Shown here one piece after another: positions 48,856 through 58,463 of a DNA stretch of 64,000 bases; position 1 is the stretch's first letter; every line of letters starts with the position of its first letter. The translations under genes were made by a program, and so were the position numbers. The notes beneath the pieces are model-generated. The model was given only the letters and a program-made list of their open reading frames with translations. It had not been told where the DNA came from and did not search any database. This DNA comes from Thermobifida fusca NBRC 14071 = JCM 3263 (GTDB lineage Bacteria; Actinomycetota; Actinomycetes; Streptosporangiales; Streptosporangiaceae): the NCBI RefSeq assembly GCF_001592045.1, contig NZ_BCWB01000037.1, positions 1-64,000 of the forward strand, given 5' to 3'.

Positions 48856-48938
48856 AGTGGAGTGCCTTTCTCACTGAGCGACAACGGACATTGAAAAAAC
48901 CCGCGTTCGTCCCCGGTTTCCGGGGGTCCCGCAGGTAG

Positions 48939-49011
48939 TAGCGGAGGCCGGACTCGAACCGACGACACAGCGATTATGAGCCGCTTGCTCTACCGACTGA
49001 GCTACTCCGCC
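48939..49011 (-). tRNA. tRNA-Met (CAT anticodon, elongator type)
   Basis: A 73-base cloverleaf. The acceptor GGCGGAG pairs with CTCCGCT (first pair G-U), the anticodon loop CTCATAA gives CAT, and the T arm has GGTTCGAGTCC. The paired first acceptor position argues against an initiator tRNA. The CCA end is not encoded. Confidence 0.95.
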
Positions 49012-49114: not shown

Positions 49115-49190
49115 TGGAGCCCCTTTACGGAATCGAACCGTAGACCTTCTCCTTACCATGGAGACGCTCTGCCGACTGAGCTAAAGGGGC
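49115..49190 (-). tRNA. tRNA-Thr (GGT anticodon)
   Basis: A 76-base cloverleaf. The acceptor GCCCCTT pairs with AAGGGGC, the anticodon stem is TCTCC/GGAGA with loop ATGGTAA (GGT), and the T arm has GGTTCGATTCC. Unlike the other three tRNAs in the window it has an encoded CCA. It lies upstream of tRNA-Met and rpmG. Confidence 0.96.
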
Positions 49191-49421: not shown

Positions 49422-51509
49422 TCAGTGCGGGGTCACCCAGACGTTCGACAGGGCGTCGCGGTGGATCGTCCGGATATCCGCAGGCAGGTTGAGGCGGCGC
49501 AGCGCATCAGGCAGGCGGGTGTCGTGGGTGAAGACCACGAGCTGCCGGTGACGGCCCACCTCCGCCAAGACCGTGGCCAGTCCCTCCACGGTCTCGGTGT
49601 CCATCGCCTGCACCGGGTCGTCGAGCAGCAGGAAACCGAACGGGTTGCCCGGCACCAGGGTGCGGGGCAGGCAGATGGAGAGCGCGAGGGCCTGGAACTC
49701 GCCCTGGCTGAGCAGCCCGGGAGCGCTGTCCGGCCCGTCGATGCCCTCCACGCTCACGTCGACCGCGACGCGGCGCTGTGCTCCCCGGCCCACCAGGCGC
49801 AGCGCTGTCAGGTCGATGTGGCGCTCCTGGCGGAGCTGCGCCCACACCTTCTCGGCGTGGGCGGCCAAGGGAGTGAGCCGTTCCGCGCGCATCTCGCGAG
49901 CGACCGCGGACAGCCAGTCCAGGGCCCGGCGGGCGGGCTCCAAGCGCTGGCGCGCGGTGAGGGCCTCCCGTGCGTCCTCGAGCCAGGCGCCCAACTGTTC
50001 GGCGAGGCCCGCCCAGCCGTCAGTGGGATCGGTGAGCTGCTCGGTGGCGGCCTTGCGCGCGGCGATCGCTGCGGAGCGCAGCCGCCGCCCCACGGTTTCC
50101 AGGTGGTTGGCCAACTGGGTGAGGTCGGTGATCTCCGCCCCGGCCGCCCACTCGGCCCAGATCTGGCCCAGCTCGCTCTCCGGCGGCAGCCACGAGGGCG
50201 GCGGGGCCATGAGGAACCGGGCTTGGTCTCGGGCGGTTTCGGCCCGCTGGTAGGCGTCTGCGGTGCTCGCGGCGATGGGTTCCAGTCGGGCGATCTCCGC
50301 GCGGACGCGGTTGACCCACTCCGGGCCGAGCGCATTGGGGGCGCCGCAGGTCAGGCAGTCGGTTTCAGCGGGGTAGCGCTCGTGGTGGTCCAGTGCCTGG
50401 CGGAGCAGCTCCACCAGGCTGCGTGCCCGGTCCCCTTTGGTCCCCGCGGTCATGGCGAGCTCCATCGCGGCGCCGCGCAGCTCGCTGGCCACGTCGTTGA
50501 TGAGGGAGCGTTCGGGCACTGCGAGACGGCGCAGGCGGCGGAGCACGACCTGCTGGGCAGGGTCGGCGGGCCCTTTGTCGGCGGCGATCGCGGCCAACCG
50601 GTCCAGGTCGAGCGAGGAGGAGGTCAGCAGTTCGACGGCGGTGGCGGCCCGGGGGTCGTTGCTGGCGCGCAGCTGGTCCAGGAGGTAGGGCAGGTCGTGG
50701 GCGGGGCGCTGGGTGGTTTTGGCGAGCCGGTCGCACGCTTTGGCCAGTCGGCGTTCGATCTCGGTGAGTTCGCTCAGTCCGAGCAGCGCGGTCAGCGTAT
50801 CGTAGAGCTCGGCGGAGCGTCCCGTGATGGTGCGACCCAGTTCGTCGTAGGAGAGGAAGGGCCGGTACCGGGCGAGGTCCTCTCCCCAGCCGAGGCTGGC
50901 GAGGCCGCCGACGTCCCCGGTGGGCAGGACTACTTCGCCGCGGGCGGAGCGGACGCTCTCCCCGGTCCACACCCGGGTGACCCGGGTCACTCCTTCCTCG
51001 CCCACCCGCTGCAACTCGACAGTGATTTCCGTCACGTCGTCGCAGTGCAGGTTGCGCCAGCCGTCCCGCCACGCCGTGGGCATGGCTTCCCAGCGGAGGT
51101 TACGGCCGGTAAGAGCGGCCTCTACTGCTTCGGCGAAGCTGGATTTCCCGGATCCGTTGCGGCCCACGATCACGGTGAGGCCGGGGCCGGGCGGGAATTC
51201 GAGGGTGGCGGCGCGGCCGATGCCACGGAAGCCTTGGACACGGACTCGCCTGAGATAGCAGTGCCGGAGGTGCCGCGGCTGCGCCGGCGCCGGTCCGGAG
51301 GACGGGAGGGGGAGGTCGACTTGTTCCCCGCGCAGGCAGGCGGCGAGCGCGTCGTCACCGTGGATGGCGGCGAGGACCCATCGGCGTGCCGTGGGGTCCA
51401 GTGGCGACTGGGCCAACCGCTCCCCTAAGGCGTAGAAGGGGGAGGTTGTCGACCTCGGCTGTGAAGGCTCCGCTGTGAATCCCTGGGAGGTCGTCACCGT
51501 CGTCACCAC
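49422..51509 (-). CDS. SbcC/Rad50-like AAA ATPase with central CxxC, function unknown
   Basis: A 695-residue protein with the split ATPase layout of SMC/Rad50 proteins. An N-terminal module of about 85 residues precedes FRGIGRAATLEF and the Walker A GRNGSGKSS (about residue 115). The middle is Leu/Glu/Arg-rich helical sequence with CLTC at residues 385-388, about half way, like a zinc-hook apex. The signature LLSQGEFQALALS and Walker B FGFLLLDDPVQAMD follow, then VFTHD (H-loop). The GTG at 51509 has GGAG five bases before it. It lies 171 bases after the JetC-like gene, where a JetD nuclease gene would be expected. It has no visible nuclease domain. Confidence 0.8.
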   Translation of the reverse strand: MVTTVTTSQGFTAEPSQPRSTTSPFYALGERLAQSPLDPTARRWVLAAIHGDDALAACLRGEQVDLPLPSSGPAPAQPRHLRHCYLRRVRVQGFRGIGRAATLEFPPGPGLTVIVGRNGSGKSSFAEAVEAALTGRNLRWEAMPTAWRDGWRNLHCDDVTEITVELQRVGEEGVTRVTRVWTGESVRSARGEVVLPTGDVGGLASLGWGEDLARYRPFLSYDELGRTITGRSAELYDTLTALLGLSELTEIERRLAKACDRLAKTTQRPAHDLPYLLDQLRASNDPRAATAVELLTSSSLDLDRLAAIAADKGPADPAQQVVLRRLRRLAVPERSLINDVASELRGAAMELAMTAGTKGDRARSLVELLRQALDHHERYPAETDCLTCGAPNALGPEWVNRVRAEIARLEPIAASTADAYQRAETARDQARFLMAPPPSWLPPESELGQIWAEWAAGAEITDLTQLANHLETVGRRLRSAAIAARKAATEQLTDPTDGWAGLAEQLGAWLEDAREALTARQRLEPARRALDWLSAVAREMRAERLTPLAAHAEKVWAQLRQERHIDLTALRLVGRGAQRRVAVDVSVEGIDGPDSAPGLLSQGEFQALALSICLPRTLVPGNPFGFLLLDDPVQAMDTETVEGLATVLAEVGRHRQLVVFTHDTRLPDALRRLNLPADIRTIHRDALSNVWVTPH

Positions 51510-51680
51510 ACCTGCTCCGTTCGTGGCCTCGCCTGTGCAGATTAGGACATAGCGGGCGAATTTCCCATCGTGCCGCGGCCCCGTGCCCGGGAGCCGGGAC
51601 AGTGGGCGGGAAACGCCCGCGACCCCGACTCCACGATCTTTCGCCCTCGCCCCACCACGGCAGGCAAGAAGCGATCTTTA

Positions 51681-54600
51681 TCACACTCCATTGAGGCGGC
51701 GCCGTTTGCCGTCCCAGGTGAAGTGCAAGGTGGCGATCCCGGGTTCCGCCGGGTCGCGCAGGCATTCGTAGATGTTGAGCTTGGGGACGTTCGGGAAGCA
51801 GCCCCAGACGCGCTCCGAGGTGAGCATGAAGTCGAGGTCGAGTTCGACGAGCATGCCCAGCAGACGGCCGTGGGTGGGTTCGTCGACCTTGGCGAACGCG
51901 TCGTCGAGCAGGATCAGCCGGGGGGTCTGCGGGGCGTGGACGGCGAGCGCGCTGAACTGGGCTGCTGCCGCAGCGAACAGCACCAGGTAGGCGATCACCC
52001 GCTGTTCGCCCTGGCTGAGCGCGGTGCGGTGGGTGAGGCGCCGCTCCCGTTCCGGGTGGGCGGCGTCGGTGACGTAGACGGTGAAGGCGAACCAGGACCG
52101 GTAGTCCAGCGCGGCGCGCAACTGTGCGCTTCCGGTCGCTGTGGGGTCGAGGCGGCGGATCGCCTCGATGCAGCGGCGCAGGGCGTCGCGGAGCCGGGTG
52201 GTCTCCACGCGGGTGCGCTCCTCGGCCGGGCGTTCCAAAAGCGGCACCACCGCGTGGATGTCCTCGTCCGCATCAGGAGCGAGCGTCCACTCCAGACGCA
52301 CCCCGAGACCTTGGGAGGTGGTGACCTCCCCCAGGACGCTGTTCATCGCGTCGATGAGCTCTCGCGCCTCGCTGATCTGGCGGGACAGGTGTCCCGCAAG
52401 CTCCCCGAGGAGGTGCCGTTCGTAGGCTTCCTCTTCGCGGGCCGCCACGGTCTCTTCCGCTTCGGTGATCCGCGTGCGCAGCCGCTCGGCGTAGTCGACG
52501 ATGTCGTGGGTGCCGTGATCGTCGTGGACGGTGACCCGTTTCACCCCTGCGGGTTCGGTGAGTTCGGTGCGGGCCGCCACGGCGGGAATTGCGGCGAGGC
52601 CGCGGTGCAGCTCCTCGTGGCCGCGCAAGATGCCGCTGTCGTCGACATCCGTGTCGCTCTGGTCGAGTCCGGACTCGATCGCGCTGATCAGCGTGTCGAG
52701 GACGCGGATGCGCTTGGTGAGGTCGTCGCTGCGCTCCGGGTCGGATTCCGCTGCATCGTAGGCGGCCAGCGCTCCCTCAGGTTCAGCGAGTTCACGGAGT
52801 CCTGCCGCGGCCAGCAGTCCCTGGTCGACTTCGCCGGTGGGAGTGGCGAGCATGGCTCGGAGCCGCGCTCCGGCGGCCAAGGCACGGTGGGCCTGTTCGG
52901 CGCGTTCCACCGTGGCAGCGCTGTGGCGGGTCTCGACCGCGACCCGCTCGTCCCGGATGCGTTGGGCGTCCCGTTCGACTGCGGGCAGGGCCTCGTCCGC
53001 GGTGTGGGCGCGGGAGCGCACCTGTTCGATCGCGTTCTCGATCTGCGCCGGGTCGGCGGCGCTGGCCCGGTCGGTGAGCTCGGTCTCGCGCCGAACGGTG
53101 ATCATGTCGTTGATGGCGGCGCTGGCCGCGTCCTCGGCGACGATGCGGGCTTCCCGGGCCCGTTTCCAGTCGGCGACGTGGCGCCGGTAGTCCTCGAGTC
53201 GTCCGGCGAGGATCTCCAAGTCCCGGTGGGCCGCGGAGATCTGCACGCGCAGCGCCCCCAGGGCCCCGCGGATCCGGGCGAGCTCCTCGTAGTGGGCGGG
53301 GAGCTGGTGTTTCAGGGCGAGCTCGGCCAGCGACGCCCGCTGTTCGAGGGCGGCGCTGCGGGCTGCGTCAGCGGCTGCGCGGGCCGCGGCGTGGGCGCGG
53401 ACGGTCGCGGCGAGCCAGGTGCGGGCCTCGTCCAGCACGGCCCAGGCCGCGGCAAGGTCGGCGCCGGAGGGGACGGACCGGTTGATCCGCACCAGGCTCT
53501 CGTAGCGGTTGTCGATCTCGGCGCGGCGCTCCTGGGCTTCGGCGAGCAGCGCCTCCGCCATTTCGATGCGCCGTTCAGCTTTGGCCCGGTGGCGTTCGAG
53601 CGCCTGGGCGCGGGCCTCCTCCCCGATGTATTCGGCGGTGGCCTTGTGGTGGCGTCCCCAGGCGACGCCGAGCCGCCAGCGCCCGTCGAGGGAGACGTAG
53701 TTCTCTGCTCCGGAAGACGCGTCAGCGGGCTGGAACCAGGACGATCCGTCTCCGGATGGCGCGGGGGATTCTTCGTCGCCGAGCAGGCGGATGGAGGAGA
53801 GCAGTGCGGTGACCGCGGCACGGTCGACTTTCACGGACTCGTCCTCGACCGGAACCAGAGCGTCGGCCAGGGTACGGCCGCTGAGCGCCGCGGTGGGGCT
53901 GAGCAGCAGGTCCCTAGTGTCGTGGTCGACGACTGTCCCTTCGGGGGTGATAAGTCCGACAAGCAGGCCGGAGGCTTCCAGAGCGGCTTCGAGCCCGGCC
54001 CGCTCCTCAGGGGAGAGATGGTCGGCGAAGTCGACCGCGCGGTAGAGGGGAACGCCGGCGTCAGCGTCCCGTGGGGCGGTGGCCCAGGCCGGACGAGGCG
54101 CGGTGACGGGGGCGGTCTCGTCTGCGCGGCGCTCCGCGAGTTCCGCGAGTTCCGCGGCGAGGTCGTGCTCCTCGCTGAGGGCTGCGTCCCGGGTGTGGCG
54201 CACCTGGGCGAGGAGCGGTTCAACGACCGCGTGGGCCTCGTGGAGCACGGTTTCCGGCAGATCCGCGGACAGGACGCGCAAGTCTTCGTCGAGCGGAGGC
54301 TCGACGCGCTGTTCCAAAGCGTCCAACGCCCCTTCGATGTCGGCGTCGTCCGGGGCAGCGGCGCGCAGGGCGTTGCACCATTCACGGACGGCGGCAGCGT
54401 AGTCGTCGCTGGCTTCGCGGACCTGGTCGATGGCGGAGCGTTCCCGTTCCCGGGCTTGTTCGACGTGGCTGTCCGCCCATTCCGCTTCGCTGGTGAGGTC
54501 GGCTTCCCGGCGTTCGGCCGCTTCCAGTTCCAGGGCGCGCTGGTAGAGGTCGTCGACGAGGGTTTCGCGCTCGGCGGCGGCAGCGTCGGTGTGGGTGAGC

Positions 54601-56027
54601 CGGTCGTGGAGGTCGGCGAGCCGTCGCCGCAGCGCGTCTATCTCGAGTCCCTGCACCGGGGGGCGTTCCACGGCCTGCTCGAGCCCTTCAAGGTTGACCT
54701 GGGTGACGCTTTCCCGGGGGGCGAGGGTGACCCGGACCGGCTGGGGGACTTCGCCGAGGCGGGCAGGGTCGATGCCGGAGGCGCGCGCGGCGTCGCGGAG
54801 ACCGAAGTGAAGGCGGCGCAGTCCCCCGATGCCGCGTTCGATGGCGGCGCAGTCGCGGTCGATGCGGTGGTGGGCCTGGGATTCCGCGGAACGGGCGTGT
54901 TCGCTGGCGACCCAGGCGGCTTCGGCGGCGCGGATGTAGGCGGCTACCGCGGCGTAGCGGGCTTCGCGTTCTCCCCGGCTCAAGGCCTGCCGCGGGTGCG
55001 CGGCGCTTGCGGTGAGGGTCGCCGCGTCCGAGTGTGCGGTGTCCCGGGTGCGGCGCAGGCGGTCGCGTTCCTCTTGTGCCTTGCTCTCCGCGGAGACGAG
55101 GGTGTCGAGTTCGGCTTCGAGCCGGGCGAGTTCCGCGTCGCGTTCCTCGAATGCGGTGATCTGCTCGCGTACCGCCGCGGCCTGCTGGCGTAGGACGCCG
55201 TGCAGGTAGCCGCGGTAGTCGGTGAGGAAGGCGGTGGCGTGCTCGTGGGCGGTGCGCAGCGCGGTGAGGCGGGCGCGGGCGCTTTCCAGGTCGGCGATGT
55301 TGCGGGCGACCTCGTCGAGGACGGCGTCGTCCATCGGGGGGAGGGCTTCGGACAGTACGGAGACGAGTTCGCCGGCTTCGAGGCGTTCGCCGACGGTGGG
55401 GCGGCGGAGCCGGTAGAGCAGGTGGATGAGGTTGCGGTACCGCATGGGGTCGTCGAGGCCGAACAGGTCGCGCATGACCCTGGTGCGGTAGCCGAGGGCG
55501 GTGTCGTAGCAGTTGTCGGGGCCGACCGCGGCGCGGAGGCGTTCGATGGGCAGCGGGCGGCCGCCCTCGATGAGGGTGAGATCGTCGCCGACGCGGCGGT
55601 CGGTGACGAAGAAGATCGGGCGGGCGTCAGGCTGGTCGGGTACGGCGAGGACTGCGGCGCCGAGGGTGCGCCGCTGCGGTTGGCCGTCGTCGCCGCGGCG
55701 GGCGAATTCGACCCACAGGTAGCCCAGCGTGGTGGTGTCGGTCTGGGTGGCGGTGGTGTCCCCGGTCTCGGTGGCGGTGCGCCCTTCCAGCATGAGCCAG
55801 CGCAGGCTGGTCCGGCTGGTGCCGGTGGTGTCGAGACGGCGGGCGTCTCCGTCAAGGAGGAAGGGCAGCAGCATTTCCAGGGCTTTGGATTTCCCTGCCC
55901 CGTTACGTCCGCGCAGGAGCAGGCGCCCGTCCCCGAATTCGAAGATGTGGTTGTCGTACTGCCAGACGTTGTGGATCCCGGCACGTTCGAGCCGGTAGCG
56001 CTTGGGGAGGGTGGTGTCCTGTCTCAT
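51681..56027 (-). CDS. jetC: TIGR02680-family SMC-like ATPase (Wadjet type III JetC homologue)
   Basis: A 1448-residue SMC/MukB-like protein. The N-terminus RYRLERAGIHNVWQYDNHIF leads into the Walker A GRNGAGKS at residues 40-47. About 1200 residues of Glu/Ala/Arg-rich coiled coil follow. The ABC signature ALSQGEQRVIAYLVLF and Walker B RLILLDDAFAKVDEPTHG are near the C-terminus. The family belongs to a conserved DUF2397-DUF2398-TIGR02680-DUF2399 cassette; from memory this corresponds to Wadjet type III, a plasmid-defence condensin. Its ATG overlaps the preceding small ORF by four bases, with GGAGG seven bases upstream. It has all ATPase motifs and appears intact. Confidence 0.85.
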   Translation of the reverse strand: MRQDTTLPKRYRLERAGIHNVWQYDNHIFEFGDGRLLLRGRNGAGKSKALEMLLPFLLDGDARRLDTTGTSRTSLRWLMLEGRTATETGDTTATQTDTTTLGYLWVEFARRGDDGQPQRRTLGAAVLAVPDQPDARPIFFVTDRRVGDDLTLIEGGRPLPIERLRAAVGPDNCYDTALGYRTRVMRDLFGLDDPMRYRNLIHLLYRLRRPTVGERLEAGELVSVLSEALPPMDDAVLDEVARNIADLESARARLTALRTAHEHATAFLTDYRGYLHGVLRQQAAAVREQITAFEERDAELARLEAELDTLVSAESKAQEERDRLRRTRDTAHSDAATLTASAAHPRQALSRGEREARYAAVAAYIRAAEAAWVASEHARSAESQAHHRIDRDCAAIERGIGGLRRLHFGLRDAARASGIDPARLGEVPQPVRVTLAPRESVTQVNLEGLEQAVERPPVQGLEIDALRRRLADLHDRLTHTDAAAAERETLVDDLYQRALELEAAERREADLTSEAEWADSHVEQARERERSAIDQVREASDDYAAAVREWCNALRAAAPDDADIEGALDALEQRVEPPLDEDLRVLSADLPETVLHEAHAVVEPLLAQVRHTRDAALSEEHDLAAELAELAERRADETAPVTAPRPAWATAPRDADAGVPLYRAVDFADHLSPEERAGLEAALEASGLLVGLITPEGTVVDHDTRDLLLSPTAALSGRTLADALVPVEDESVKVDRAAVTALLSSIRLLGDEESPAPSGDGSSWFQPADASSGAENYVSLDGRWRLGVAWGRHHKATAEYIGEEARAQALERHRAKAERRIEMAEALLAEAQERRAEIDNRYESLVRINRSVPSGADLAAAWAVLDEARTWLAATVRAHAAARAAADAARSAALEQRASLAELALKHQLPAHYEELARIRGALGALRVQISAAHRDLEILAGRLEDYRRHVADWKRAREARIVAEDAASAAINDMITVRRETELTDRASAADPAQIENAIEQVRSRAHTADEALPAVERDAQRIRDERVAVETRHSAATVERAEQAHRALAAGARLRAMLATPTGEVDQGLLAAAGLRELAEPEGALAAYDAAESDPERSDDLTKRIRVLDTLISAIESGLDQSDTDVDDSGILRGHEELHRGLAAIPAVAARTELTEPAGVKRVTVHDDHGTHDIVDYAERLRTRITEAEETVAAREEEAYERHLLGELAGHLSRQISEARELIDAMNSVLGEVTTSQGLGVRLEWTLAPDADEDIHAVVPLLERPAEERTRVETTRLRDALRRCIEAIRRLDPTATGSAQLRAALDYRSWFAFTVYVTDAAHPERERRLTHRTALSQGEQRVIAYLVLFAAAAAQFSALAVHAPQTPRLILLDDAFAKVDEPTHGRLLGMLVELDLDFMLTSERVWGCFPNVPKLNIYECLRDPAEPGIATLHFTWDGKRRRLNGV

Positions 56028-56176
56028 CGGCCGTCCTCCACTCCGTACCGCTCGTCTTGGGGCCCACCGTGCCGGATAGGCAGGGCTCCGGGGATGGGGT
56101 CATTGTCCCGGATGCAAGAGATGATCGGGAATGTCTCTTTTGTCGTGCGGGTGGTTGTCGCACCGTGGTCGCTCAT
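56024..56176 (-). CDS. Small ORF (50 residues) between jetB-like and jetC-like genes
   Basis: An ATG at 56176 overlaps the jetB-like stop by ATGA. The TGA of this frame (56026-56024) overlaps the jetC-like ATG by ATGA. The 50-residue product starts MSDHGATTTRTTKETFPIIS, with CIRDNDPIPGALPIRHGG, and ends in an acidic/basic tail. It is hydrophilic with no signal peptide or helix of membrane type, and no family was recognised. The precise four-base overlap on both sides suggests a translated, coupled gene. Alternatively it is a translational bridge that carries ribosomes to jetC, whose ribosome-binding site lies inside it. Confidence 0.6.
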   Translation of the reverse strand: MSDHGATTTRTTKETFPIISCIRDNDPIPGALPIRHGGPQDERYGVEDGR

Positions 56177-57381
56177 TCGGCATCGCTCCGGGCGAAAGCG
56201 GCGTCGCGGTAGCGTGCGGCGGCGGCGAGCAGTCGCCACCCTTCGGTCAGGCGTTGAGGCGCGTCGTCGGTGGTGACACGGTCGAGCAGTCGACTGTCGT
56301 GGAGCAGGGTCAGGATGCGTTCGGCGAGATCGTCAGGGTCGGGGACGTGACTGTGGGCAGTGTGTGACCACTGGTGGACGTTGTCAACGACCGCGGCGAG
56401 TTCCGTGTCGAGCAGCTCCGCGGGGATCGGAATCCCGTGGCTGAACGGCGGCGGGGCGAGCATGGTGACGAGGCGGGACAGCAGGACCAGGGCGGAGTAG
56501 CTCACCAGTCCTTTTCCGGGGAAGGTCGTGGGATGGACGGCTTCCCGGGGGTCATCCATGGCCTCTGCAGGCATGATCAGGGCCACGCCTTCGGCGCGGA
56601 TCTCCAGGTCGCAGCCGAGGAGATCCGCGAGTTCCGCTGCGGCCCGCCACTGGTGGCGGGCGAGCTGGACCCGGTGGACCGTGCTGAGCTCTTCCCGGTA
56701 GACGACCGGGGTTTCCGCGAGCAGGCGGCGCAGGGTGAGTTCGGCGGCTTTCTCGTCGGAGGAGACCGAGTCGCGTTGGACCAGGTTGACGAACTCCTCC
56801 GGGGTGGCCGTGTGCGGGATGTGGGCGAGCAGGTGCGCGGCGATCCCGTGGTTGACGGCCAGGGCGACTTCGCAGGTGCCGTCCCTGGCGTAGTCGGCGA
56901 GCCGTCCCCCGGTCTCGGTGAGCACCCCCCATCCGACGAGTCTGGTGAGCCCGGCGACGAAAGCGCGGCGCTCCCCCAGCCTCGCTTCGGGGTCGAGGGC
57001 GAGCCCGGCCTCCTCGGCAGCGGCCCGCACCCCCGCAGCCAGCTCGGCGACGGTGGTGCGCGGACCTGCATCGGGCAGGGCCGCGAGAGTCAACGCCATA
57101 TAGGTGTAGGCGCGCGGGGTGAACGGCGCGCCGCTGTCGCGGAGCAGTGGGGTGGTCACCGTGTGGACCAGCCCGGTCTTCACCAGCCTGGCGTGGTCGT
57201 CGGCGATGAGCAGCTCGTAGCCGAGCACGCGCCGGAACTGGCGGACGAGCCAGTCGGAGTGGGCTTGGACGAGCGCGAAATCCTCGGGATGGCTGTGCAC
57301 GGTGATGAGGGGGTCCGCCAGTAGTCGGCGGGCCGCAGCCTGACGCTCAATGGTGAGCGCGATGTCCTCCTTCGCGGCCAC
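56173..57381 (-). CDS. jetB: TIGR02678/DUF2398 protein (Wadjet type III JetB homologue)
   Basis: A 402-residue protein. It begins with the family-like ERQAAARRLLADPLITVHSH and FALVQAHSDWLVRQFRRVLG, then YELLIADDHARLVKTGLVHT, winged-helix-like segments, and a C-terminal segment PQRLTEGWRLLAAAARYRDA. In the type III Wadjet reading this is the KITE-type subunit (JetB) that binds the kleisin and the SMC. It appears intact. The GTG start at 57381 has little Shine-Dalgarno support. It lies 65 bases after the truncated DUF2397 gene and overlaps the small ORF by four bases. Confidence 0.8.
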   Translation of the reverse strand: MAAKEDIALTIERQAAARRLLADPLITVHSHPEDFALVQAHSDWLVRQFRRVLGYELLIADDHARLVKTGLVHTVTTPLLRDSGAPFTPRAYTYMALTLAALPDAGPRTTVAELAAGVRAAAEEAGLALDPEARLGERRAFVAGLTRLVGWGVLTETGGRLADYARDGTCEVALAVNHGIAAHLLAHIPHTATPEEFVNLVQRDSVSSDEKAAELTLRRLLAETPVVYREELSTVHRVQLARHQWRAAAELADLLGCDLEIRAEGVALIMPAEAMDDPREAVHPTTFPGKGLVSYSALVLLSRLVTMLAPPPFSHGIPIPAELLDTELAAVVDNVHQWSHTAHSHVPDPDDLAERILTLLHDSRLLDRVTTDDAPQRLTEGWRLLAAAARYRDAAFARSDAE

Positions 57382-57446
57382 GTTCTGGCGTCACCTTCCT
57401 GGTCGGGGTGGGAGTGCTTGCGAAGACAGGAGCGGGTGGCGGCTGC

Positions 57447-58166
57447 TTACACCGCGAGGTTGTCGGCGTCGTCCGACCCACTCATTGCCGGGACGGGGGT
57501 GTGGGGCTCCGTGTCGGTGTCCGCTACGGCGTCGCTGCCGTGCTCGGGTTCGGTGCGGGCGTAAGGGGTGGCGCACAGCCGCAGCCCGGTGAGGGTGAGG
57601 TCGCCGCCGTCCTCACTGAGCACGAGGACGGCATCGGCATCGTGGCGCACATGGAGCCGGATGTCGAGTTCGAGGTCGCCGGCACTGACTGGGGCGGCCG
57701 TGGCGTCGCCGGAGCCGAGGGCACGGGTGAGGAGCTCCACGAGCACTCCGAGCGCCGCCTGGGACAGGGTGATACGGCCGGTGCGGGGCGTCAGTTCGGC
57801 GAGACGGGACCGCACTTCCTCAGCAGCGGAGCGCCGCCAGTGGGCCGCGGCTTCTGCGGTGTCGCGGAGGCGCACCTGTTGGGCGCTGTGGTCTTCTGCC
57901 GGGGCAAGAGCCCCGCCTCGGGCGGGGCGGACCGCTGACGTGTCCGCGGGGGGAACATCCCACCAACTGGCGGCCACTGCGATGGTCTCCTCGGTGCTGC
58001 CGCTGAGGTGCCGCGCGGGGTAGAGGGAGAACGCGGCGGTGAAGAGGCGGTGGGCCGTGGCCGCGTCGGCCTGGTCAAACCAGGAAGCCAATCTGAGCAC
58101 GGCGGCGCGCCCGTACGGCGGTTTCGCGCGTCGGTCTGCTGGCTCCCGGATCACTGAGTCACCCAC
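57447..58166 (-). CDS. jetA: N-terminally truncated TIGR02677/DUF2397 protein (Wadjet type III JetA remnant)
   Basis: About 239 residues matching only the C-terminal half of DUF2397 proteins, which are usually near 500 residues. Recognisable parts are LRLASWFDQADAATAHRLF, FSLYPARHL, a SWWDVPP motif, and PAEDHSAQQVRLRD. The N-terminal half is absent; upstream the frame runs into the tRNA-Tyr terminator and tRNA. Possible starts are GTG at 58166 (eight bases after a TAGTCT -10-like box, which would be leaderless) or GTG at 58154. In Wadjet systems this is the kleisin subunit. Whether the truncated protein works is unknown, so a pseudogene is equally possible. Confidence 0.7.
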   Translation of the reverse strand: MGDSVIREPADRRAKPPYGRAAVLRLASWFDQADAATAHRLFTAAFSLYPARHLSGSTEETIAVAASWWDVPPADTSAVRPARGGALAPAEDHSAQQVRLRDTAEAAAHWRRSAAEEVRSRLAELTPRTGRITLSQAALGVLVELLTRALGSGDATAAPVSAGDLELDIRLHVRHDADAVLVLSEDGGDLTLTGLRLCATPYARTEPEHGSDAVADTDTEPHTPVPAMSGSDDADNLAV

Positions 58167-58327
58167 ATCACAGCAGACTAGAGATTTCCCGGGGCGGTTG
58201 CCTCCCGAATCCGCTGAGATCTGGCTCGCTCCCCGCGATACGGTCGGGAATTCCACCGGGCTCAGGTGTCTGCCAGAGGTGCCGGGATGCACCGGCCGGA
58301 GAGCGCTGAACCGTGCCCGAAGACGGC

Positions 58328-58371: not shown

Positions 58372-58380
58372 TGCGACCTG

Positions 58381-58463
58381 TGGCAGGTGTAGGGTTCGAA
58401 CCTACGTAGGCTAACGCCGGCAGATTTACAGTCTGCTCCCTTTGGCCGCTCGGGCAACCTGCC
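58381..58463 (-). tRNA. tRNA-Tyr (GTA anticodon)
   Basis: An 83-base class II tRNA with a long variable arm. The acceptor GGCAGGT pairs with ACCTGCC, the anticodon stem is GCAGA/TCTGC with loop CTGTAAA (GTA), and the T arm has GGTTCGAACCC. The CCA end is not encoded. It marks the upstream edge of the defence-like island. Confidence 0.96.

What the first reader, a model, noticed from the sequence alone, without database searches (positions are those of the whole stretch)
49422..58166. Remodelled or decaying Wadjet type III-like condensin island lacking JetD
The sequence shows, in order, a truncated DUF2397 protein, an intact DUF2398 protein, a small ORF, an intact 1448-residue TIGR02680 SMC-like ATPase and an SbcC/Rad50-like ATPase. 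The known cassette is DUF2397-DUF2398-TIGR02680-DUF2399, in which DUF2399 is the JetD nuclease that cuts captured plasmids. Here the nuclease is missing and the kleisin is half-length, yet the large SMC and KITE genes keep open frames and ATPase motifs. Long open frames under decay would be unexpected, so the system may have been kept in a nuclease-free form, perhaps with the second ATPase as a new effector.
Basis: partly seen in the sequence, partly recalled or inferred. Interest (0 to 1): 0.85.

Follow-up and report, generated by a model that had tools for sequence, protein, structure and literature searches.

The report
Nuclease-free Wadjet paired with Rad50-like ATPase
A bacterial DNA-looping machine that normally cuts invading plasmids has, in one family of actinobacteria, lost its cutter and half of its clasp, yet is kept intact at one fixed place in the chromosome beside a second DNA motor that carries the same promoter-like signal, so it probably does a new job.

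Summary
On the minus strand between tRNA-Tyr and tRNA-Thr lie a C-terminal-only DUF2397 kleisin (jetA), DUF2398 (jetB), TIGR02680 (jetC) and a Rad50/SbcC-like ABC ATPase (here 'aaa'). No DUF2399 nuclease (JetD) and no second DUF2397 was found in this genome. The 'small ORF' is not a gene.

It is not decay, not an island and not type III: PADLOC models and the solved Neobacillus vireti complex point to type II Wadjet. In 200 genomes of the GTDB family, 42 hold the aaa orthologue; 41 of them have the short jetA, one (G060) a full-length one. All 40 fetched aaa loci sit beside the same tRNA-Thr/tRNA-Met pair. In 21 of 42 no DUF2399 was found anywhere. ATPase motifs are invariant or nearly so; pairwise omega is 0.15-0.30. 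A promoter-like motif occurs 60 times in 40 loci (651 kb), always just upstream of jetA or aaa. The short-form jetC are one clade, sister to G060 (full jetA, no JetD, aaa convergent), inside JetD-bearing type II.

Best reading: a nuclease-free, kleisin-truncated Wadjet II derivative, fixed in Nocardiopsidaceae and coupled to a Rad50-like ATPase. Its function (chromosome maintenance, or non-cutting defence) is inferred.

The parts
58173..58182 (-). promoter-like motif TCTAGTCTGC upstream of jetA (fits YYTAVTCTGC)
   Evidence: sequence; motif count
57447..58166 (-). short jetA: C-terminal part of a DUF2397/JetA2 kleisin, 239 aa, GTG start
   Evidence: conserved start and alignment of 37 rows
56173..57381 (-). 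jetB: DUF2398/JetB2 KITE-type subunit, 402 aa
51681..56027 (-). jetC: TIGR02680/JetC2 SMC-like ATPase, 1448 aa, ATPase motifs conserved
51537..51546 (-). promoter-like motif CCTAATCTGC upstream of aaa (fits YYTAVTCTGC)
49422..51509 (-). aaa: Rad50/SbcC-like ABC ATPase, 695 aa, with invariant CxxC (zinc-hook-like)
58380..58463 (-). tRNA-Tyr, upstream flank of the fixed site
49115..49190 (-). tRNA-Thr, downstream flank of the fixed site
48938..49011 (-). tRNA-Met, downstream flank of the fixed site

Best explanation
The locus is a fixed, nuclease-free derivative of a type II Wadjet (JetABCD) complex that works together with a second, Rad50-like ATPase. SHOWN by sequence: JetD is missing; the kleisin JetA keeps only its C-terminal part; JetB, JetC and aaa are full length, with ATPase motifs and purifying selection; jetA and aaa carry the same promoter-like motif; the cassette keeps one chromosomal site across 18 genera; its sister locus (G060) has a full-length JetA but already no JetD beside it, with aaa next to it. 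INFERRED: JetC and JetB, held at the SMC head by the JetA C-terminal part, still bind DNA and use ATP. Without the N-terminal part, which in other KITE-type complexes binds the SMC neck and dimerises, the motors would act singly or as an open ring and cannot run the 'two coupled motors meet, then JetD cuts' reaction. The Rad50-like ATPase, perhaps a zinc-hook dimer, takes over pairing, loading or DNA-end sensing. The likeliest job is upkeep of the host's own DNA (organisation, segregation or repair) beside the housekeeping Smc-ScpAB, in parallel to JetD-less MksBEF.
For: C-terminal-only DUF2397 in 41 of 42 aaa genomes; no DUF2399 in 21 of 42; no JetD in the short loci by a JetD model that finds it in 17 full-length loci; same tRNA site in 40 of 40 fetched loci; omega 0.15-0.30; conserved ATPase motifs in 41 JetC and 41 aaa rows; motif 60 times, all upstream of jetA (31 of 36) or aaa (29 of 40), none elsewhere in 651 kb against 1-3 in random sequence; short-form JetC one clade with G060 as sister, inside JetD-bearing type II; G060 with full-length JetA and no JetD beside it; ScpA in 42 of 42, so the function is an added one. 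MksBEF of P. aeruginosa as a JetD-less relative with a chromosomal role: passages of PMC10586767.
Against: No functional data. Co-occurrence of aaa and jetABC is one clade's vertical inheritance, so it is not many independent events; the motif is absent from 5 of 36 jetA and 11 of 40 aaa stretches, and its reach in whole genomes was not validly tested. In G008, G046, G049 and G158 short jetA and aaa lie on different contigs, and in G158 about 9.9 kb upstream of aaa hold no jet gene. JetA is the least conserved subunit (39-79% to the window's), and the window's JetA and JetB score under NCBIfam's cut-offs (46 against 165.85 and 87.5 against 124.65 bits). AlphaFold models were too poor to test the geometry. 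In C. glutamicum a JetD-bearing relative acts on plasmids and not on the chromosome (passages of PMC7083940).
Confidence: 0.55

Rival explanations
1. It is still a defence system: JetABC senses foreign or circular DNA, and the Rad50-like ATPase is the effector or recruits one (silencing, sequestration or arrest instead of cutting by JetD).
For: Type II Wadjet ancestry; aaa shows weak similarity to ATPases of defence systems in PADLOC (mad3 84 bits, LmuB 62 bits).
Against: Fixed site and vertical inheritance, with no sign of an island; no effector domain found in aaa; JetD-bearing Wadjets are kept separately in some of the same genomes.
Confidence: 0.27
2. aaa is an independent neighbour; the jetABC genes alone are the system, and sharing of site and promoter motif reflects history only.
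For: aaa stands on the opposite strand in G060; insertions or contig breaks separate aaa from jetABC in some genomes; distant aaa relatives (350-460 bits) occur without short jetA nearby.
Against: Shared motif at both promoters; aaa strong orthologue and a DUF2397 gene together in 42 of 42 genomes.
Confidence: 0.11
3. The short complex borrows JetD or a full JetA from another, canonical Wadjet in the same cell.
For: 21 of 42 genomes have some DUF2399 match, a few of them fragments or weak hits, and many have a second, full-length DUF2397.
Against: 21 of 42, the window's genome included, have no DUF2399 match; 8 have the C-terminal part as their only DUF2397 hit.
Confidence: 0.04
4. A decaying Wadjet remnant.
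For: JetD and the N-terminal part of JetA are missing.
Against: Same form across 18 genera; omega well under 1; motifs kept; jetC is one open frame in the 37 of 40 loci where it was fetched whole.
Confidence: 0.02

Closest known systems
Wadjet type II (JetABCD; TIGR02677/02678/02680/02679; PDB 9qe0/9qe1)
   Same: JetA C-terminal part, JetB, JetC and their order; JetC 5e-65 to 9qe0_A; nested among JetD-bearing type II loci
   Different: No JetD; JetA lacks about 300 of 483 profile positions; a Rad50-like ATPase in place of JetD; fixed chromosomal site
MksBEF / MukBEF condensins
   Same: SMC, KITE and kleisin without a nuclease (passages of PMC10586767 and PMC10512200)
   Different: Derived from type II; kleisin lacks the N-terminal part through which MukBEF dimerises; extra ATPase; chromosomal role untested
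Rad50/SbcC, Lamassu LmuB and MADS mad3 (for aaa)
   Same: ABC head motifs, coiled stretch and CxxC
   Different: Scores far below the curated cut-offs of Rad50 models (25-29 bits against 453-1000); no SbcD/Mre11-like gene between jetC and tRNA-Thr

Membership tests
Wadjet type II | JetC (TIGR02680) and JetB (DUF2398) | tested here: met
   JetC 825 bits over cut-off 462.85; DUF2398 250 bits over 26.9; TIGR02678 is under its cut-off, 87.5 of 124.65
Wadjet type II | full-length kleisin JetA (DUF2397/TIGR02677) | tested here: not met
   only positions 300-481 of 483; 46 bits against cut-off 165.85
Wadjet type II | nuclease JetD (DUF2399/TIGR02679) | tested here: not met
Wadjet type II | cuts circular plasmid DNA | not testable with these tools
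   no assay; no JetD found
   the PADLOC Jet hits of the three genes are JetA2, JetB2, JetC2 and, weaker, JetC1
MukBEF/MksBEF-like chromosomal condensin | SMC, KITE and kleisin subunits without a nuclease | tested here: met
   by sequence only, kleisin partial
MukBEF/MksBEF-like chromosomal condensin | kleisin N-terminal part that binds the SMC neck and dimerises | tested here: not met
   N-terminal positions of DUF2397 absent; domain roles from passages of PMC10512200
MukBEF/MksBEF-like chromosomal condensin | acts on the chromosome | not testable with these tools
   needs deletion, Hi-C and ChIP-seq
Rad50/SbcC (for aaa) | ABC head motifs and a CxxC in the middle region | tested here: met
   invariant in 41 rows
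Rad50/SbcC (for aaa) | score over the curated Rad50 cut-offs, and an Mre11/SbcD partner gene | tested here: not met
   25-29 bits against 453-1000; no partner gene between jetC and tRNA-Thr; the rest of the genome was not searched for SbcD

The most novel reading that the evidence does not exclude
A two-ATPase DNA machine of a kind not yet described: a Wadjet SMC motor whose kleisin can neither dimerise nor close the neck gate, run together with a Rad50-type zinc-hook ATPase under one promoter signal, which has become a core genome-maintenance system of Nocardiopsidaceae; a defence complex turned housekeeping, with G060 preserving the step in between.
Probability: 0.33. Interest if true: 0.9.

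Novelty: new variant of a known kind. Interest (0 to 1): 0.72.

Why it matters
Whether defence SMC complexes and chromosomal condensins turn into each other is open; MukBEF and MksBEF are suspected to descend from Wadjet (PMC10586767, section 7). Here such a step seems laid out in living relatives: JetD-bearing type II, then a form without JetD but with full-length JetA (G060), then the short-kleisin form. A kleisin without its N-terminal part is also a natural test of whether an SMC motor needs kleisin dimerisation and a closed neck gate. The window's genome shows only this copy, so a deletion would be clean.

Tried and rejected
Decay: rejected by recurrence, omega and motifs. Type III: not borne out. 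Small ORF 55903-56163: rejected. JetD in trans: not found in this genome. JetA split, with its N-terminal half elsewhere: none found in the own genome; seven further genomes (G010, G018, G023, G042, G043, G063, G183) also have the C-terminal part as their only DUF2397 hit. Mobile island: rejected. Replacement of the housekeeping condensin: rejected, ScpA in 42 of 42.

Led nowhere: AlphaFold models from 4 and 3 rows were too poor to search with (mean pLDDT 51 and 42), so no fold search was run. A PDB profile search with the short JetA gave no hit; a phmmer search with a wrongly framed stretch of L005 was useless. The motif search in the whole own genome used a wrongly written pattern that does not fit the jetA site, so nothing is claimed about the motif outside the fetched loci. 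An early impression that several full-length loci lack JetD came from picking wrong reading frames; the JetD model corrected it for L134, L135 and L144-L147. YN00 omega failed for 9 of 12 pairs, so NG86 values are given. Neighbours of distant aaa relatives showed no shared named partner in the 10 plus 10 proteins scanned. Row L146 of the first tree was translated through a frame break and holds stops; it was left out of the second tree, which used 30 of the 73 rows. A 72-row rebuild without it ended in a script error before anything was shown.
Full report
WHAT IS THERE. On the minus strand between tRNA-Tyr (58380-58463) and tRNA-Thr/tRNA-Met (49115-49190, 48938-49011) lie, in order, a 239-aa protein that matches only positions 300-481 of the 483-position DUF2397 profile, a full-length DUF2398 protein, a full-length 1448-aa TIGR02680 protein and a 695-aa protein with SMC_N/AAA_23 matches. 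PADLOC matches the first three to JetA2, JetB2 and JetC2, which I read as Wadjet type II. A JetC profile finds PDB chain 9qe0_A, named JetC, at 5e-65, and a relative's full-length JetA (L006) finds 9qe0_E, named JetA, at 3e-30. That this entry is the type II complex of Neobacillus vireti is inferred from passages and the reference list of PMC12647877; the structure paper is not held and no held paper names 9QE0. The 'small ORF' overlaps the start of jetC out of frame and is not a gene.

THE NUCLEASE IS ABSENT. DUF2399 has no match in the window's genome and DUF2397 matches once, here. The 14 control genomes did not ring, but the same search does work in this clade: it finds 26 of 47 genomes, among them all 5 taken from outside the strong-aaa set. 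Of the 42 genomes with the aaa orthologue 21 match and 21 do not; of the matches G111, G060 and G158 are fragments or weak, and G192 is in pieces. A JetD model from five relatives finds JetD beside 17 loci with full-length DUF2397 but gives no credible hit in the short loci (best E 0.6 at full sensitivity).

THE SHORT FORM RECURS. One scan of genome contigs gave three relatives of JetC: Thermobifida cellulosilytica (82%), Actinorugispora endophytica (77%) and Allosalinactinospora lopnorensis (62%); the last two are Nocardiopsidaceae. All three keep short jetA, jetB and jetC; aaa is whole in two and cut by the contig end in the third. In 200 genomes of the GTDB family the aaa profile matches 61 at E 1e-40 or better; 42 score over 850 bits, the other genomes at most 460. 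All 42 have a DUF2397 hit: 41 have the C-terminal part (starting at profile position 288-300), and G060 has a full-length one. Regions were fetched for 40 of the 42 (not G000, the window itself, nor G049). tRNA-Thr and tRNA-Met lie beside aaa in 40 of 40; short jetA lies in the fetched stretch in 35 of 40, always on aaa's strand with jetB and jetC between. In the other five it is beyond the fetched end (G160), on another contig (G008, G046, G158) or full-length (G060); in G049 too aaa and short jetA are on different contigs. In G158 some 9.9 kb upstream of aaa hold no jet gene. Among 394 genomes of the class 23 hold the strong orthologue, all in the same GTDB family; three from two other families score 520-567 bits.

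IT IS UNDER SELECTION. NG86 omega between the window and three congeners is 0.21-0.30 (jetA), 0.28-0.30 (jetB), 0.19-0.22 (jetC) and 0.15-0.18 (aaa). In 41 short-form JetC rows the LSQGEQ signature, Walker B and D-loop are identical, and Walker A is GRNGAGKS in 37 and GRNGTGKS in 4. In 41 aaa rows (the window plus 40 loci) Walker A, LSQGE, the DDP of Walker B, the FTHD histidine and both cysteines of CxxC are invariant. jetC is one open frame in the 37 of 40 loci where it was fetched whole; seven show an insertion near residue 112. JetA is the least conserved subunit (39-79% identity to the window's). Eight genomes, the window's included, have the C-terminal part as their only DUF2397 hit, so the N-terminal half is not simply encoded elsewhere, as far as the profile can see.

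JETABC AND AAA ARE LINKED. YYTAVTCTGC occurs 60 times in 40 loci (the window plus L065-L103, 651 kb, both strands): 31 of 36 jetA and 29 of 40 aaa genes have it within 160 bases upstream of the profile match, and it occurs nowhere else there. First-order random sequence gives 1-3 hits. Five jetA and eleven aaa lack it; some show near variants. The loci share descent, so the count is not of independent events; what is informative is that two different promoters share it. The full-length loci L133-L150 and L153-L172 show none. Its reach in the whole genome was not validly tested.

HISTORY. In a tree of 73 JetC the 41 short-form rows are one clade (SH-aLRT 100) with G060 as sister (100), inside a group whose other members (L134, L135, L144, L145, L147) have full-length JetA and JetD. 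A 30-row tree with a mixture model, without the faulty row L146, agrees. G060 lies between the same tRNA genes; its JetA matches TIGR02677 positions 13-481, and JetA, JetB and JetC are over their curated cut-offs; no JetD lies beside them, and aaa is on the other strand. The simplest order is: JetD lost with aaa beside the genes; then the JetA N-terminal part lost, with aaa in line. The root is assumed (midpoint, chosen outgroup).

HOW IT MAY WORK (inferred). Kleisins bridge the neck of one SMC and the cap of the other, with KITE sites in the middle; in MukBEF and Wadjet the kleisin also mediates dimerisation (passages of PMC10512200), and Wadjet is thought to cut when its two coupled motors meet (PMC10586767, passages, section 7). 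A JetA without its first 300 or so positions should keep the cap site and perhaps the KITE site and lose the neck and dimer parts. Without those and without JetD, the Wadjet cutting reaction is not available. The Rad50-like ATPase with a zinc-hook-like CxxC could supply pairing, loading or DNA-end sensing. ScpA is present in 42 of 42, so the system adds to Smc-ScpAB. JetD-less MksBEF of P. aeruginosa has a chromosomal role (passage of PMC10586767), whereas JetD-bearing MksBEFG of C. glutamicum acts on plasmids only (passages of PMC7083940). AlphaFold models were too poor to test the geometry.

NOVELTY. Listings of text searches for DUF2397/2398/2399/TIGR02680 (none), TIGR02680 (one unrelated), Nocardiopsis with Wadjet (one; its passages concern other genes), Wadjet with JetD and type II, and kleisin/truncated/Wadjet/JetD/lack showed no title or abstract start that describes this form. 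Only open-licence papers were searched, so an earlier description is possible. I rate it a new variant of a known kind.

Noticed in passing
L141, L142, L149, L150, L157, L159, L161, L162 (against L163): Full-length jetABC next to a superoxide dismutase gene with no JetD found beside it in eight genomes, while L163 at the same place keeps JetD: a second JetD loss in the same clade.
   Followed up: partly
L153, L155, L156, L158, L168, L169: A third group of full-length jetABC with no JetD found in the fetched span, beside kin that keep it (L166, L171).
   Followed up: partly
L105-L123: Distant aaa relatives of about 780-840 aa have a C-terminal extension that the window's aaa lacks, and many are followed by a 114-151-aa ORF without any Pfam or PADLOC family among those scanned.
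   Followed up: partly
jetC of L089, L092, L093, L096, L099, L100, L102, near profile position 112: JetC carries an insertion within one open frame in these seven loci.
   Followed up: no
L124 (G023:C1:4436031-4437909): A second aaa relative in G023 lies in two pieces in different frames.
   Followed up: no
L075, between jetC and aaa: About 5 kb of other sequence separate jetC from aaa, yet all of short jetA, jetB, jetC and aaa are kept in that genome.
   Followed up: no
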